From Aphelenchoides besseyi (taxonomy: Eukaryota; Nematoda; Chromadorea; Rhabditida; Aphelenchoididae), in contig JAMPIQ010000001.1 in assembly GCA_024699855.1 (NCBI GenBank), forward strand, positions 1,302,001-1,366,000: a stretch of DNA of 64,000 nt, written 5' to 3'. This document shows positions 28,962-61,896 of the stretch, piece after piece. The translations under genes and the position numbers were made by a program. Positions within the stretch are counted from its first letter, which is position 1, and the number at the start of each line of letters is the position of its first letter. Under the pieces are notes generated by a model. That model searched no databases. It was given only the letters and a program-made list of their open reading frames with translations, and was not told the origin of the DNA.

Positions 28962-30547
<1,586 letters not shown>

Positions 30548-30710
30548 ATACTCGCGTCTACGTATTTATCTAACTGTATTTATTCTTATTGTTTTGCTCA
30601 CTTTAATAAATTGCCTTAAGATCGCCAAATGAATGGGAAGAGATGACTTGTAATCACCCGCAATTCTTATTTTGAATGGAATCCATTCGTTTTGATGTTT
30701 TTGTTCAGAA

Positions 30711-31356
30711 ATGTCAGTTGAGGCTGAGGTTCGATACTACGATCCTAATGAATTCGTTACCACAAGTTTGTCCAACAAAGTGAGCAAATCGTCTCAAACG
30801 TTTGGAACCCAAGCGATCACTTTAAGTGGAAAGGTTTGCTCGCATTCATCGATTGGTTGGATTGTCGTTTTCAGACCATCATTATGGATGGAGTTGTTTT
30901 GCGCGGTGATTTAGCTCATATCAGCGTTGGCAGTAACTGTTACATCGGTTCACGAACGATCATTCGATCCTCGTACAAGAAGATCTCAAGCGGTGTCACT
31001 TATTTCCCAATGCGAATTGGCTCTCGAGTAATTATCGAAGAGGTTTGTCAGTCAACTAAAAACCCGTATTCTTATCTTAACTTAAGGATTGTGTTGTGAT
31101 GGCAGCGGAGATTGGAAATTCGATTTACATCGAAAAGAATTGTCTGATTGGTCACAGCGTTGTCATCAAGGATTGCAGTTATGTCACCGAAGGTACAGTT
31201 CTGTCGGCCGATTCCGTCGTTCCGCCCTTTTCGATTGTCAGTGGAAATCCGGGTCGAGTTGTCGGAACGATGCCGGCGAACACAGCTCAAGTGATGAATG
31301 ATCTCAGCTCCGAACTCTATTGTAAATTCAGTCCAACGGTTGCGGGCATGTCGTAA
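30711..31356 (+). CDS. DCTN5: dynactin subunit 5 (p25)
   Basis: Three exons encode about 185 residues. The N-terminus is MSVEAEVRYYDPNEFVTTSL, then left-handed beta-helix hexapeptide repeats (GVVLRGDLAHISVGSNCYIG, RIGSRVIIEEDCVVMAAEIG, NCLIGHSVVIKDC, VPPFSIVSGNPGRVVGTMPA). This is the p25 subunit of the dynactin pointed-end complex, which with p27, p62 and Arp11 helps bind cargo adaptors for dynein. The ATG is 2 nt after a TTTTTGTTCAG acceptor, fitting trans-splicing. It could be the second gene of an operon with Arp3. Confidence 0.92.
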
Positions 31357-46280: not shown

Positions 46281-47416
46281 CTTGGCTGTGAATAGAAAAG
46301 TGGGCACAAAAAAGATGAGAAGCAAATTATAAAACTCGAGGAATGTGCCCCCTGTTAAACCATGACTAAAAATAGAACGACTAACTGTAAAGCCAATTAA
46401 TTCGCGATGAACGGTGTCGTCTTATTAGTGTCGACTTGTTGCTAGGCAGCCAACAAATAACTTTTGCGGAAAGACACGCAAATTTGCACTCAATGGGAAA
46501 AAACGAAAGTCGTCGAAATTGGACGTCGACGCAAAACGAATTGATCACAAGAAAACTCGAACGTTTTTTCGCGAATCAAAATCATTTTTTTCCAATTGCA
46601 CGCAATTCGACTTTCAAAACCAAAAACGCAAAACAACGCACAAAAATACGAGAAAGAAGACTTTTGGCGCCGAATCCGCCGAAGGCGTCGAAACGAAAAC
46701 AAACGTCGAGCTTCGAATTTTCGTTGTTCTTTCGATTATTGACCTCATCATTTTTATGAGTTCAATATCAATGGCAACACCAACATTGTGGCGGGCATTG
46801 GAATCCTAAACGCTGTGGGAACGCCGCCCGAACAAGAAAAATAGACGAGAGCTATGCGTCGCCAGAAGAGAGTGAGTGCGCTGTGAAAAAAGAGTACGTC
46901 ACACATAGCGAGAGGCTTTCTCGGGGGGTCTTTTTGTGGCCCCGCGTTGACTCGAGCGTGTAGTCGAAAGAAGAGCAGACGCACCGCATTTTGCGTGGGG
47001 GACAGTTTTCGCTTTTTCCAGTGAGCCGGCGAACTCGTCATGTTTCGCAGTCAGTTTGTGGCAAACTTTGCTCTTTTGGGCCCCGTTCAATTCCGTTTCG
47101 AAAAGCGTCGCGGTTTGGTGACGCTTTTGCAGTAAAAACGCGAATTTTTACAACGTCAAAACGCAGGCACGTATTCTCGTTTTTGTACGTTGGCGCGTGA
47201 ACGCCGCAAGTTTCGAACTTTCCATTGAGGTGATCGACGGCAAACTTCTATTGTTATTATTCAGTTCAAACACATTGTCGGTAATGCTTTTCGTTTATTT
47301 CGATAGAAATGTCGAGATGCGCTAAAGTGATCATGTACACAAGTGATGGTCGAAAATATGCAAAAAATCTGAAGAGCACCTGCTGGAATGCAAAAGGAAG
47401 GTTGACTAAACGGGTT
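46281..47416. other. intergenic upstream of CHD gene
   Basis: A 1.1-kb spacer between the PAM stop and the CHD start, both on the minus strand. It is GC-richer around 46870-47000 than its surroundings. Several short ORFs on both strands overlap; none is supported. Confidence 0.45.
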
Positions 47417-50146
47417 TTACGGTAAATGTCCTTCTTTCGTTGGCGACAAAGTGAAATCATCTTCTTCGGATTCATCGCCCTCCAGCAATTCCGAAGTTCG
47501 AAGCGGTTTGAATCCCTGAAACAAAATGGGAATTAGTAAGACTCGAAGGAGAACACATGACAACGAAAGAATTTACGACACAAAGTTTCTTCGACTTTCT
47601 TACCGTTCGATCGACCATTCCATTTTGTTCGGCAACATCGCGGAAACGCATATAAGCAACGAATCCGGCTACACCGACAGACAAAAAGACGAGAATAAAT
47701 ACTAGCAAACTAGAACCACCATCCACGGGCAACTTCGAGTCGCCACTATTGCCATACAATTCTGCCGATGTCATGTGCTGGGACTGACTACCTTGTTTCA
47801 CTTCGAATTCCCACAACACACCGCCGTTGGAGTCGATTTCTCCCACCCAAACGGCGTTCTTACGACCACGAATAATGTGAGGCATATTGAAAAGTTCTGT
47901 TTTGGGTGTAAACGAGTACTCAAGAAGGTTTGTTCCGTTTCGTAGTCCCGAAACAAACGCCTCGATCTTCTGTCCTGGTGATGCTCGACCGGGAATGAAG
48001 TAGAGACCGTGATCTATGAAAAGACGATTAGTTTCAGGTTCCATTCCTCGAATTACCAGGACAAAAATGAACAGAGTAAACATTCTGGAAATGAGCGGAA
48101 TTGGCGATTTGGTCGAGAGCATCGCCTTGCATGTTGAAGATTTGAACTCGTCCGTTCTCGCGATCGGCAACAAACAACCGATGAGTCGATTCGTCCAAAG
48201 TGATATCGTGCGGTAGGAAGAAGGAACCCAACGGTGGTTGTCCACCTTCACGCGAATACGACGATTGGGTTCCCCATTCGGCAACAAAACTTCCATCTTT
48301 CGCATAGTGAACAATTCGATTGTTACAATAACCATCAGCGATGAAAATTCCACCGTCCAAGCGCGAAACTGCAACAGCTGCCGGCTTGCAGAAATGTTTT
48401 TGATCGGAGCCGGGTTCAAATGCCGTTCCAAATGCTAATACTTGTTCCAATTTGCCTGAAAAAGCCTCAACATACCGAAAACTTTCAAAATCATTCAACT
48501 AACCACTTCGTAGTCGCCATTTAATAACCTGATGTGAACCAACATCTGTCGTGTAAATGTAACTGCTGTCATCGATGAACACGCCATGTGGCAAATAGAA
48601 CTGCGACTGTCCATAGGCGGCCGCCAACTTCAAACCTTCACGACTTTGCGTTGTGAACAAGAGAACCGGCTCTTCGATTGGTTCTCGACTTTGAAGTTGA
48701 TTGTTTTGATCAAAAGTCCTAAACAACAAATAAGCAAATTGTATTGATTTAAACTTACGATCCATCCCAAACTCGACTACCACGATGGAAAACAACCAAA
48801 TTGCCGGAACGATCGAAAGTCAATCCGGCAATTTGTCCCAATCGATGTTCACCGATTTTCGTGACTTTCGACTTTTCGACGACACCAAAAGGTGTTGCAC
48901 TTTGATGAGCAGCATGTTCCCATTCGGGATGAGAGGGCAGAAGAGTTAGCGCATCTTTCGGATATTCAGCGGCCATCAAATCGGGTTTTTCGTTGTAACT
49001 GCAACCCGCACCGTAAGGGAATGGATCGGCAACATTGGCGTCCCGATAGAACATCATATCTGTAATACAATCGTTTCTCAATACTTACGATTACAGCCAA
49101 CAAATCAGTTATGTTGTAAAAAGACTTACACTAAAAACAAAATGATTAGTACGATAGTTTTGGTTGTAAACTTACGAAATTGCACATTTCATTGACACCC
49201 ATCGATCCCATCGGAACGTAATCATCTTTATCGTGCGAATCAAAACGACAAGCAGCGGCCATGAAATCGCCTTTTCGAATCACCAAACCTTCGGGACTAC
49301 TTTGGAATAACTGTGGCCACTGAGGATTTCGTTTTCCAATTTGTTGCCATTTATCTTCGTGTTTGAAATAGGCAGAAACAACACGACCCATAGCGTGAGT
49401 GTGAGTGCGAAAAGCGAAGGGATGAAGATCTGCTTCGCCAGTGTAAACACAACTCATATTGTTGTAGGCAGCTTCTAAACGCGGTGGAATCGGTTCACCA
49501 GAAACGAAAAGATAAACAGCGGCGAGATTGGCAGGTCGAACATCGGACAAATGCATTGTAACACCTAAACTTCATTAGAGAATGTTTGAAAGCGTTGTAA
49601 TTCCCACCTGAATAATCTTCAACTTGTCCTTGGAATGGATGAGCATAGTGGATTTGAAGCACGATGTATTGAACAGGATCGTTTTCATTTCCAATAGCAA
49701 ATCCAACATTTTCTGGTAATGTCAGTGATGGAGCGTTTCGAGCCCATGCGTACAGAATATGACTGGAACCTGCACACGTCGCACCGCCTTTCCAAACCTG
49801 TGATTGATAGGCCGGTTGATCACAACCATAGAGAAGCATGTGATGAACCCGATCGGCACTTGCATGAGGTTCGAATTTTACTGAAATCAAATTTCTTACA
49901 AATAAAATGCACAGAACACTACTCACCGATGTAGCCGGGTTCTGCCTTTATACTCACAGAAACATAATCGTCATCCTAAACACAAAGTTGTCTTTGGAAT
50001 ACATCAGAATTGACACTCACTTCTGTCGGTGTATAACCGGGAATCTGAACCAAAAGTTGTTTGTACTGTTGAGTTTTACGGCTGACGGAGCTTGTGCTTA
50101 TACTGCAGATAAGCAGAAACAACAGGACCAGGGTTCTTGTCCACAT
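47417..50146 (-). CDS. pamn-1: bifunctional peptidylglycine alpha-amidating monooxygenase (PHM-PAL)
   Basis: The enzyme converts glycine-extended neuropeptides to amides in secretory granules. A signal peptide (MWTRTLVLLFLLICSIS) is followed by the PHM domain: copper ligands RVHHMLLYGC, the IHYAH segment, HTHAMGRVVSAYF, and the methionine in GVNEMCNF. The PAL propeller follows with NHL-like blades (IAGLTFDRSGNLVVFHRGSR, YLPHGVFIDDSSYIYTTDVG, SRLDGGIFIADGYCNNRIVH, HDITLDESTHRLFVADRENG). Near the end a membrane segment (SLLVFILVFLSVGVAGFVAY) and an acidic cytosolic tail (LLEGDESEEDDFTLSP) are seen. Both catalytic halves are in one polypeptide. The start is 15 nt beyond the stop of the upstream DPY-19 gene, right after a TGATTTTCAG acceptor. 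Confidence 0.95.
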
Positions 50147-50167
50147 GAACTGAAAATCAGTTTATTC
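50147..50167 (-). promoter_or_regulatory. minimal intercistronic junction (stop, poly(A) signal, 3' splice site)
   Basis: On the minus strand the order is GTTGAATAAACTGATTTTCAG, read as DPY-19 stop TAA (50162-50164) within AATAAA, then TGATTTTCAG, then TTC and the PAM ATG at 50146. This resembles SL1-type operon junctions known in C. elegans. Confidence 0.6.
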
Positions 50168-52367
50168 AACAATCACGTAATTGAACACGTCAAAATGCGG
50201 CAAGACACGTTGAATCTCGGAATATGTTTGAGATAATAAAAAGACAAGATCGTTGAGGGCAAATGCACAGTTACGACTAGAAAAGTTCATCGACGGCAAT
50301 CGATAAATACCAATATGGTTAGAGTCGGTAAACACGAAACGTGCGATTCTCGAACACAAGAACGGGAAACGATCCGTTTTGCGGGTTCTTCAATGCGTCG
50401 CAAAAACGATCGTGCGGTGAAGTTCGCAAATTCGCGGAAGAAACCGACGGAGGAGTGCGATCGGATTCGGTTTTCTGTCCGTTGGCCACGTCTATTACGT
50501 CTTTTAATGCACAGCCGTTCGACTTGGCGTAACAAATGGAGTTCTCCACGATGATGTGTGTCGCTTTTTCGGACTTTAAAACCTTGTAGACGTGGTCGAA
50601 TGGTGCTCGAGCGTACATTTGGTAGATTCGAAAAGTTCGATCTCGAAGTCGTTTGTCTTCGAAATGAGGATGATTCGTGATTGCTCGATTTGTACAACAT
50701 TTGACACCGGCAAGCAACTACAAAACTTCAATTCAAGTAATTCGATTACAGCCACATACCTGCATTGAACCTGCGTAGACGTTCTTGCCGCTTTCTTTGC
50801 TAATGAACTCCATTAGTTTTACGGTGTCGGGGTCATAAAATTCCTACAAGAAGAAGTTAGCAGCGACAATCACTTAATCAAACTACCTGTTCGTGTGACA
50901 TGACTTTCTGATAGAAGTTATAGTGATCGAACGATATCTTGGCTGCTAGTGACAATATCACAGCGTACTTCACGTAACGACCAACAAAACGATCGAAATA
51001 CCCAAAAGCACAAGAAGCCAAAATGCTCATATGCGGGAAAAGAATATACTTCATACGCAGAGTGGTGTAGGTCATGACTCCGAAAAGGACCGTTTGCACG
51101 TGCAAATACAACTCGGTAGAAGATGGAAATTGACGAAATTTACAAAAACGATAAACAACAGTCACAATAAACAAAACCGAAGAAACACCAAACATTTGAA
51201 TTACGCCGTTTTTCATCGTACGTTCAACGAAATCATAACCAAGAAACGAGAAAGCGCCATGACAAAGATACACAAGTGTTTCGAAGGGTGGATTGCTGAT
51301 GGAAAGACCAAATTTACTGAGGAAAAAGTGCCAAATGTGTGTATCTGCCTTAACCACAAACTTTGAAGCAAAAATGAATCCAACAAACAAAACGAAAATG
51401 GACAACAGTTTTACGAACGCCGATTTCACTGCGAAGCTTCTTTGAGGGAAAATGCTAAAGACAATCGCAACGGACAAGTTGAACCACAGGATCGAAGCAA
51501 CAAGAAGCATTGGTTGGAAGAATTGGACGACAATTCCAAAACAAAACCCAACGGTTTGTGAAATCAAAATCCGACGAATTACACTTGTTAGCTCCGGAGA
51601 TAGAATGGAAACCATAAGAAGAGAAGCAGATTGAAACAAACACACGTATTGTGAAAACTGCCAACAAATGGAGAACAAGAAAGTGAACAGCGAAATCAAA
51701 ACCAAACCAAAAGCTGAAGTTTTCGATTGACGTAGAACACGAATAACAAATAGAATTTGAAACCACAACCAAGGTAACGCGAATATTTCTCGCATGTTCA
51801 ATGCAAAATTGATTCTGGATACGTCCTCGTGGTTTACAATCATCCACGTAGTTGCCATCAAGCCGTATATCCATTCCGAGCCAATGGTCCATGCCAAAAA
51901 GAAGGTCGCAGTCACGGCCAATCCGCCGTTTAGAAAGCAGAAATAAGCATAAAAAAGCGTGGGGATTGGAAGCTGAAAAGGCCAAAAAGCGGACAAAAAA
52001 CGATAGAACACGGCCAATAAAACTTCCGGGTAGATGTTGAAACGTTCCAACGAATTGATTACGTGCGGAAACTCGGACTTCTGATCGTAAATCAGCTTTC
52101 GAAGTCCCGTCTTCAAGCTCTTGGTTTCGACTATTTGATAAAAGAAAGAAGCATAGAAGCCCGATTCAGTGCGCAACGAAATTCTGCGCTCCATCTGCAG
52201 AAAAACAAGTCATTTAGAAACGAATGAAAACTCGCACTCACCTCTTCGATATTCGAAAACCACAGGGATGTTTCGTGAAAGTCATGCATACACTTGGCAA
52301 AGATAAGGCCCATGGAAACGGCCGCCAAAATACCGACCACATTATTGAGCGCCGAGAACGTTGACAT
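50162..52367 (-). CDS. dpy-19: DPY-19 protein C-mannosyltransferase
   Basis: This ER enzyme attaches mannose to tryptophans of thrombospondin repeats and some receptors, using dolichol-P-mannose. The N-terminal exon has one membrane segment (MSTFSALNNVVGILAAVSMG). The conserved lumenal loop follows: ERRISLRTESGFYASFFYQI, then INSLERFNIYPEVLLAVFYR. About a dozen hydrophobic segments lie in one 1.3-kb exon (50887-52194). The soluble lumenal C-terminus has VYAGSMQLLAGVKCCTNRAI and YQMYARAPFDHVYKVLKSEK, typical of the family. About 690 residues, close to the C. elegans protein. It is the upstream partner of the PAM gene. Confidence 0.93.
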
Positions 52368-52729: not shown

Positions 52730-53194
52730 ATGGTCTGTGAGAAATGTAAGTCAATCGGAAGATGGCACAGTTAGTTTTTGTTTTCAATTTGCAGGCACTA
52801 CGAAGTTGAACAAATTGGCGACAATCCACAAAACTACACCGAACGCATCCGCTTCGTCGAGTAGCAGCAGTTCGACGAAGAAACATGTTACGAATGAAAA
52901 CAAGTTGCTCACAATGAAGAACAGGTAAAGATCATGAGAAGCTCTTACTATTAGCTACGATTCTACTGCAGGTTCAAACCGGACAAAGTGGAACCATTCA
53001 AGAAATGTCGAATTTGCAAGAGAATGTGCCATCACGTAGCTGCTCATTATTGTCAAGATTGTACGTCCGATCTATTACACTATCGTTTTTATACTTCGCT
53101 TTCAGGTGCCTATCAAAAAGGAATCTGTTGTATGTGTGGCCGAAAGATTCTCGAAGAGAACGCCATCAAAGGATATCGTCAAAGTCTGACGTAA
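52730..53194 (+). CDS. CRIPT: CRIPT (cysteine-rich PDZ-binding / minor spliceosome-linked protein)
   Basis: Four exons of about 105 residues. It opens MVCEKCTTKLNKLAT and contains NENKLLTMKNRFKP. The conserved Cys core is CRICKRMCHHVAAHYCQDCA followed by YQKGICCMCGRKIL, with paired CXXC zinc-binding sites. It ends RQSLT, a PDZ-ligand-like terminus as in vertebrate CRIPT (QTSV). A Ser-rich insert (ASSSSSSSTKK) is lineage-specific. The protein was described as a PSD95 partner and is also linked to the minor spliceosome. The first exon is only 17 nt (MVCEK plus two bases), and three short introns keep frame. Confidence 0.95.
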
Positions 53195-53294
53195 ATGTAT
53201 TCACGTTTTTGTTTCAAATGTAAATATAAACAGTTACGAAAGTGTTTTATTACCCGAATTCAATGAAATGTTTTGATAAAATTTCGAAGAATAA

Positions 53295-61298: not shown

Positions 61299-61498
61299 TC
61301 CTTTGTAATCACGTTGTTTAGATCGCCTTGTACGAGGGAATGAAGCGTTATGCGCGGAAGAATGGTAAGGTTGAAGTCGCGAACGAGTTAATTGTTTGTT
61401 TTAGAAGAGTCGATTGGCATGTCGAGAATTGTTAATTGTCGAGTTATGAAATTTTGAAATCGCCAATTGCCGAGTTGATCGTTCTTTGAGTTGTAAAG

Positions 61499-61896
61499 TG
61501 TTGCGACCTTTCTTACGTTTTTCCCAGACGATCTGGCGTCCATATTTGAATGCATCTTTGTTGTGAACCGCCGGCGTACGGCGGCCATCTAACTATCAAA
61601 ACAACACCGCATCACACCTGCTATCCATTCGACTTTAAGTCATTTCTCCTCCCAGTCTAGCCGATCGCGTAATCACGATACTCCGTATTTAAACGACGAT
61701 CGGAGACTATTTGCCATTCCTTTTCCACCATTTTTCGTTAACTCATTTTTTTTACTCTCCTCTTTTTCTCTGACTCATTTTTGTATTCGTGTTTGTAATG
61801 TTTCGCGCCTATTCTAAATAAAAGGTTTATTAACCCAAGTTTGAGTTTGAGAATTTGGGAAAACCTCTTCGAAGAAGTGTCGCAATTGTCACGACA
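61499..61896 (+). repeat. candidate 5' LTR
   Basis: Begins TGTTGCG and ends TCACGACA, giving TG...CA termini, about 398 nt. It holds TATTTAAA at 61686 and an AATAAA at 61815. Boundaries are inferred from the PBS position because the second LTR is outside the window. Confidence 0.45.

What the first reader, a model, noticed from the sequence alone, without database searches (positions are those of the whole stretch)
50147..50167. DPY-19 and PAM genes separated by 15 nt with overlapping stop, poly(A) signal and splice acceptor
Seen: stop TAA (50162-50164) lies inside AATAAA, followed at once by TGATTTTCAG, TTC and the PAM ATG. Known: SL1-type operons in C. elegans have essentially no intercistronic sequence, so 3'-end formation of the first mRNA and trans-splicing of the second compete at one site. 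Inference: this pair is such an operon, linking two secretory-pathway protein-modifying enzymes.
Basis: partly seen in the sequence, partly recalled or inferred. Interest (0 to 1): 0.75.

Follow-up and report, generated by a model that had tools for sequence, protein, structure and literature searches.

The report
Two-gene nematode operon, DPY-19 and PAM
In a plant-parasitic nematode two neighbouring genes for enzymes of the secretory pathway sit so that the probable end signal of the first lies against the probable splice start of the second, most likely a two-gene operon; the stop codon in the original report was misread.

Summary
The string is real: AATAAA (50166-50161), C, TGATTTTCAG (50159-50150), TTC, PAM ATG (50146), minus strand. 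But the TAA inside AATAAA is not the DPY-19 stop. DPY-19 ends at TAA 50321-50319, where Pfam Dpy19 matches to its last position. Stop and ATG are 172 nt apart, not 15.

The operon inference gains support. Three public Aphelenchoides besseyi models and one of Steinernema glaseri merge the same two genes. S. hermaphroditum lists them with consecutive locus tags and one contig length. The pair thus occurs in two infraorders of Tylenchina. All 25 SL RNA genes found carry one SL1-like leader.

The AATAAA 11 nt before the exon start is the only canonical poly(A) signal in the gap; 4 of 322 predicted cis-acceptors have such a neighbour. Genome-wide the motif string is not enriched over a scrambled hexamer.

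Best reading: a two-gene operon with overlapping 3'-end and trans-splice signals (SL1-type spacing), a new member of a known kind. No RNA data were available; classical spacing from a variant signal is the main rival.

The parts
50319..52367 (-). DPY-19 (C-mannosyltransferase-like) coding region, exons 52367-52242, 52194-50887, 50843-50760, 50717-50319; 638 aa
   Evidence: Pfam Dpy19 3.1e-80 and 1.9e-34 on the two main exons; spliced frame open
50319..50321 (-). true DPY-19 stop codon TAA
   Evidence: Pfam match to profile end 653/653; same or nearly the same C-terminus in relatives
50150..50318 (-). region between DPY-19 stop and the PAM exon (DPY-19 3' UTR; outron of PAM, including the acceptor)
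50286..50291 (-). GATGAA, the only other hexamer found of the 20 poly(A)-signal forms scanned (weak)
   Evidence: scan of 20 hexamers
50161..50166 (-). AATAAA, only canonical poly(A) signal between the two genes; the TAA inside it is not DPY-19's stop
50150..50156 (-). splice acceptor TTTTCAG in front of the PAM start, proposed trans-splice site
   Evidence: acceptor score 6.6, against a median of 5.9 for 322 predicted introns; the public A. besseyi model P0003 reads ...SFP-F-MWTRT..., which fits use of this same acceptor
50144..50146 (-). PAM start codon, 3 nt after the acceptor
   Evidence: N-terminus MWTRT resembles MWSRS (S. glaseri, inside a chimeric model) and MWKRS (S. hermaphroditum)
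47417..50146 (-). PAM (peptidylglycine alpha-amidating monooxygenase; PHM and PAL halves, C-terminal hydrophobic segment), 10 exons, 753 aa
   Evidence: Pfam Cu2_monooxygen 5.2e-18, Cu2_monoox_C 5.3e-24, NHL 3.5e-14; spliced frame open
50105..50131 (-). G/U-rich stretch in the PAM signal-peptide codons, possible downstream element for DPY-19 polyadenylation
   Evidence: inference from sequence only

Best explanation
DPY-19 and PAM form a two-gene operon in Aphelenchoides besseyi (species inferred from near-identity to public records). One transcript starts in the 362-nt gap between the DPY-19 and CRIPT start codons and runs through both genes. The precursor is resolved at one place: the poly(A) machinery reads AATAAA at 50166-50161 and would cut about 10-25 nt on, at or just past the acceptor; the spliceosome uses TTTTCAG at 50156-50150 to join the species' SL1-like leader to position 50149, 3 nt before the PAM ATG. 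The binding sites of the 3'-end machinery (AATAAA) and of U2AF (TTTTCAG) are 4 nt apart, so the two reactions probably exclude each other on a given precursor. Shown: gene identities, coordinates, orientation, the same pair in Steinernema, presence of SL RNA genes. Inferred: co-transcription, trans-splicing of PAM, use of this AATAAA, mutual exclusion.
For: Same-strand neighbours with a 172-nt stop-to-ATG gap. The S. glaseri model joins at ...VESP-D-MWSRS, so an acceptor used by that model probably lies within about 6 nt of the PAM ATG there too (inferred from protein alone). 25 SL RNA genes found, 25 of 25 with leader GGTTTATTAACCCAAGTTTGAG. Strong acceptor (6.6); the best GT between 50717 and the acceptor scores 3.4, below the 12 DPY-19/PAM donors (3.8-7.4), some of which were seeds of that score. 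AATAAA is the only canonical signal in the gap and 11 nt from the exon start; chance 1-2%.
Against: No RNA evidence. The motif string is not enriched genome-wide over a scrambled hexamer (50 against 47). The 172-nt gap also fits a classical operon: in this window an actin-family gene (Arp3-like) and a DCTN5-like gene show AATAAA 98 nt before the exon start. A weak variant signal, GATGAA at 50291, would give similar spacing. The best donor-like GT in the last DPY-19 exon (3.4) is not outside the range of predicted introns (10th percentile 3.0, 25th 4.1). In two filarial species listed with both genes the contig lengths differ.
Confidence: 0.6

Rival explanations
1. Operon with classical spacing. 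DPY-19 is polyadenylated from the variant signal GATGAA (50291), about 120 nt before the PAM acceptor, and the AATAAA beside the acceptor is incidental.
For: Stop-to-ATG distance of 172 nt; the actin-family/DCTN5 pair in the same window has AATAAA 98 nt from the exon start; a U-rich stretch (50244-50230) lies in the gap.
Against: GATGAA is a weak form (recalled), and a chance AATAAA at this spot has 1-2% probability.
Confidence: 0.25
2. Two separately transcribed genes. PAM has its own promoter inside or behind DPY-19 and its outron is removed by trans-splicing at the same acceptor.
For: Trans-splicing of single genes is common in nematodes (recalled); no promoter test was possible.
Against: Order and orientation are shared by Aphelenchoides and S. 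glaseri, and adjacency by S. hermaphroditum; only 172 nt are free.
Confidence: 0.12
3. A real cis-spliced DPY-19-PAM fusion protein, as the public gene models P0001-P0004 literally say.
For: Four predicted proteins carry both domains (three of them A. besseyi, one S. glaseri); P0003 fits use of the acceptor 50150/50149.
Against: The three A. besseyi models join at three different points; donor-like sites in the last DPY-19 exon are on the weak side (best 3.4); P0002, P0003 and P0004 cut off part of the conserved FRVYRL end and P0001 runs past it; S. hermaphroditum has two separate complete genes.
Confidence: 0.03

Closest known systems
SL1-type operons of Caenorhabditis (e.g. CBROP0134 of C. 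briggsae, with Cbr-vha-11; PMC9258526, passages seen; Williams et al. 1999 cited there, not seen)
   Same: Same-strand neighbours; poly(A) signal next to the proposed trans-splice acceptor; SL1-like leader in the genome
   Different: Here the stop codon is 172 nt from the ATG; poly(A) site and leader are not measured; no second leader type was found that could be excluded
Classical nematode operon with a spacer of about 100 nt (C. elegans median distance between gene annotations 99-105 bp in PMC7986045, passages seen)
   Same: Short gap, downstream acceptor at the ATG
   Different: AATAAA is 11 nt from the exon start; the actin-family/DCTN5 pair in the window (98 nt) looks like the classical form
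Tunicate operons without intercistronic region (Ciona intestinalis, single SL, median distance 1 bp; PMC7986045, passages seen)
   Same: One leader type for all genes; 3' end and acceptor adjoining
   Different: Different phylum; in Ciona this is the rule, here the motif string is not enriched genome-wide

Membership tests
SL1-type operon | two adjacent genes on one strand | tested here: met
   the same pair in Steinernema
SL1-type operon | no sequence between poly(A) site and trans-splice site | tested here: inconclusive
   AATAAA 11 nt before exon start; the poly(A) site itself is unknown
SL1-type operon | downstream mRNA carries SL1 | not testable with these tools
   no RNA; 25 SL1-like RNA genes with one leader found in the genome
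SL1-type operon | one polycistronic precursor | not testable with these tools
   needs nascent or long-read RNA
Classical SL2-type operon | about 100 nt between canonical poly(A) signal and acceptor (definition recalled) | tested here: not met
   the only AATAAA is 11 nt from exon start; a variant hexamer at 50291 leaves room for doubt
Classical SL2-type operon | SL2 RNA present in the species | tested here: inconclusive
   RF00199: 0 matches, but the control genomes did not ring either; 25 of 25 sites of a donor-plus-Sm pattern carry the one leader, a pattern that would miss SL RNAs with another donor or Sm context
DPY-19 family (PF10034) | full-length Dpy19 domain | tested here: met
   profile positions 26-498 and 534-653 of 653 on two exons
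Bifunctional PAM | PHM N and C domains plus PAL/NHL half in one reading frame | tested here: met
   392 of 738 aligned residues identical to S. hermaphroditum PAM

The most novel reading that the evidence does not exclude
In a nematode with a single leader type, an operon kept since the ancestor of Tylenchomorpha and Panagrolaimomorpha resolves its precursor by an either/or choice at overlapping AATAAA and acceptor sites, so that each transcript yields DPY-19 or PAM mRNA but not both, tying C-mannosylation to peptide amidation.
Probability: 0.3. Interest if true: 0.55.

Novelty: new member of a known kind. Interest (0 to 1): 0.4.

Why it matters
SL1-type operons seem few (2 in C. briggsae by PMC9258526, passages) and were described in Caenorhabditis, where SL2 exists. 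A pair shared by Aphelenchoides and Steinernema, in a genome where only one SL1-like leader was found, lets one ask whether overlapping poly(A) and trans-splice sites are an old way of resolving operons, next to a classical-spacing pair in the same window. It also suggests that four public gene models fuse two genes that should be split.

Tried and rejected
Considered and rejected: stop codon within AATAAA (other frame); SL2-type processing by an SL2 RNA (none found, but the control was silent, so not proof); a real fusion protein. Genome-wide motif counting as support for a class of sites failed: scrambled hexamer 47 against 50. The first gene-finder settings were poor (far too many introns; DPY-19 and PAM fused under both settings). 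Of the three settings only the first gave PAM from 50146 to 47417, and it broke DPY-19 into two pieces; the other two also broke PAM. Statistics rest on that first setting, and its 114 genes include split ones. For that reason two results were not used as support: a strong acceptor within 40 nt before 30 of 114 predicted starts, against 9.5% of sampled control ATGs, and its table of short same-strand gaps. The exact string typed first was wrong (it lacked the C at 50160) and found nothing. Rfam at gathering threshold gave 0 matches in the window. All ten paper searches; of these, (dpy-19 with peptidylglycine alpha-amidating monooxygenase; SL1 operon with polyadenylation terms) returned 0 papers. 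I saw listings for all and passages of seven papers, no whole paper; nothing on this gene pair was seen there.

Full report
WHAT IS THERE. The window lies in a genome of 47,386,574 bases in 31 contigs; C1 has 18,141,642 bases, and match positions reach 17.7 Mb on C2 and 9.5 Mb on C3, so three contigs hold most of it. DPY-19 of the window is identical to the A. besseyi record P0003 at 624 of 626 aligned residues, and PAM to P0002 at 737 of 739, so the organism is taken as Aphelenchoides besseyi or a very close relative. The karyotype catalogue lists 6 (ploidy 2) for A. besseyi (PMC11555361, passages), which fits three large contigs. On the minus strand DPY-19 (52367-50319) is followed by PAM (50146-47417). 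A CRIPT-like gene (Pfam Cript on its exon at 52955-53194) lies on the other strand; I read its ATG at 52730, leaving 362 nt between the two start codons.

THE STOP CODON WAS MISREAD. The finding puts the DPY-19 stop at 50164-50162, inside AATAAA. The DPY-19 terminal exon ends instead with FENRTFRVYRL and TAA at 50321-50319; Pfam Dpy19 matches it to profile position 653 of 653. Orthologues end at or near the same place: FRVYKVL in S. hermaphroditum and S. carpocapsae, FRVYRLLLS in B. okinawaensis, FRVYRVNCRGEV in Panagrellus. The TAA in AATAAA is out of the DPY-19 frame. So stop and ATG are separated by 172 nt, not 15.

WHAT REMAINS. AATAAA (50166-50161), C, TGATTTTCAG (50159-50150), TTC, ATG. 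AATAAA occurs three times on the minus strand between 46,000 and 53,500: here, at 47299 behind the PAM stop, and at 53251. In the gap it is the only canonical signal; of 20 hexamer forms scanned one other, GATGAA at 50291, was found. The acceptor scores 6.6, above the median 5.9 of 322 predicted introns. PAM begins MWTRT 3 nt later, like MWSRS and MWKRS in Steinernema.

CHANCE. AATAAA density gives 1.3-1.7% for a hit within 20 nt of a given point, and 4 of 322 predicted cis-acceptors show one. The coincidence here is thus moderately unlikely by itself. Across the genome the full string occurs 50 times (two acceptors are counted twice through alternative ATGs), the reversed control 24 times; a scrambled hexamer gives 47, of which 15 begin AAATAAA and so also contain AATAAA; replacing ATG by GTA gives 30. 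The string is therefore not a sign of a large class of sites, and this pair stands on its gene anatomy and conservation.

CONSERVATION. A query made of DPY-19 plus PAM found 11 proteins at E of 1e-5 or better among 7,270 candidates. Four carry both domain sets: P0001, P0002 and P0003 (A. besseyi, on contigs of 16.9, 16.1 and 18.1 Mb) and P0004 (Steinernema glaseri, 1,333 aa); one search rechecked the domains in P0003 and P0004, for P0001 and P0002 the precomputed ones are taken. The three A. besseyi models join the halves at three different points (RLEPYISASS, ENRT-ISTSS, SFP-F-MWTRT), the mark of gene models forced over a boundary rather than of one real junction. P0003 fits use of exactly the acceptor 50150/50149. 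Aphelenchoides is Tylenchomorpha and Steinernema is Panagrolaimomorpha, so adjacency is old, unless it arose twice. Against a wider spread: Cercopithifilaria johnstoni and Acanthocheilonema viteae are listed with different contig lengths for the two genes (75,536 and 71,754; 22,943 and 9,690), though a pair split over contig ends is not excluded. For C. elegans I recall, without a call, that dpy-19 and T19B4.1 are on different chromosomes. Of 36 proteins at E of 1e-20 or better (only the 7,996 best candidates were scored) the same four were chimeric; the 120 listed of 1,991 gave no further DPY-19 chimera. Many of the listed nematode proteins came without contig data.

LEADERS. SL1 with up to two mismatches occurs 82 times. 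Rfam SL1 gives 18 matches at E of 0.001 or better, none over the curated cut-off, with 50 of 10,971 candidates scored. A donor-plus-Sm-site pattern gives 25 genes, and each of the 25 coordinates is preceded by GGTTTATTAACCCAAGTTTGAG. Rfam SL2 gave none, but that search had no positive control. B. xylophilus is reported to lack SL2 trans-splicing and to have 25 SL1-like sequences (PMC3164644, passages).

HOW IT WOULD WORK. One transcript enters from the DPY-19/CRIPT gap. The 3'-end machinery on AATAAA would cut 10-25 nt downstream, at 50151-50136, which is the acceptor and the first PAM codons; the leucine-rich signal-peptide codons after it are G/U-rich and could serve as downstream element. 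U2AF on TTTTCAG, 4 nt from AATAAA, would direct the leader to 50149. Both at once on one precursor seem sterically hard, hence the proposal of mutual exclusion. Only the anatomy is shown; the rest is inference. My own estimates: operon of either kind 0.85, PAM leader at 50149 0.85-0.9, use of this AATAAA 0.65, strict mutual exclusion 0.3.

A BUILT-IN COMPARISON. In the same window an actin-family gene (Pfam Actin; TAA 30545-30547; Arp3-like is recalled) is followed on the plus strand by a DCTN5-like gene (Pfam DCTN5; predicted ATG 30711); AATAAA 30605-30610 lies 98 nt before the exon start. That looks like classical spacing, in a genome where only one leader type was found. The DPY-19/PAM gap could be of that kind too if GATGAA is used, which is the main rival.

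VERDICT. The coordinates of the signals are right, the stop codon is wrong, the operon inference is better supported than the finder could know, and the SL1-type detail is likely but unproven. It is a new member of a known kind.

Noticed in passing
window 61420-61896 (partner repeat at window-scale 68350-68826, in L039): Two identical 477-bp LTRs (TGTCG...CGACA, GGCA flanking on both sides, a primer site that looks tRNA-Gly-like (recalled, not tested), a frame behind the first LTR with Pfam DUF1759) each contain AATAAAA followed at once by an exact 22-nt copy of the host spliced leader (61824-61845). The R region of this retrotransposon may be the host leader itself, which would let a trans-spliced genomic RNA still make its first strand transfer.
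   Followed up: partly
G000, 82 leader sites: 57 of 82 leader copies are not among the 25 SL RNA genes. Of 11 close pairs (12 kb or less) 6 lie on one strand 6.7-8.8 kb apart, like LTR pairs. L009 and L010 share 433 bp that end exactly at the leader's last base and then diverge. Flanks were read for 9 of the 57. One literature search (15 of 34 papers listed) showed nothing like it in titles and abstract starts; in C. elegans the 2.4-kb Cer1 mRNA is found with and without SL1, the 8-kb RNA not with it (PMC3315495, passages).
   Followed up: partly
window 49130 (minus strand): A one-base exon T between a strong acceptor (9.2) and donor (5.0) in PAM restores the family motif MCNFYMMFY. The three public A. 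besseyi models differ here (FVD, FVN, or a premature stop in P0003, which fits a 42-nt exon 49130-49089 and a 29-nt intron). An alternative donor 5 nt on, scored not above 0, would give FVN instead.
   Followed up: partly
window 30545-30711 (+): Actin-family (Arp3-like) to DCTN5-like same-strand pair with classical operon spacing: AATAAA 98 nt before the exon start, predicted ATG 2 nt after it.
   Followed up: partly
P0005 (Bursaphelenchus okinawaensis): DPY-19 is annotated as one protein with an upstream C2/CUE-domain (TOLLIP-like, recalled) part, so in the same nematode family dpy-19 may be the downstream gene of another tight pair.
   Followed up: no
SL RNA genes, e.g. L001-L008: The leader differs from C. 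elegans SL1 at two positions (GGTTTATTAACCC against GGTTTAATTACCC); five inverted pairs of SL RNA genes on C1 have their leader copies 354 bp apart (start coordinates).
   Followed up: no
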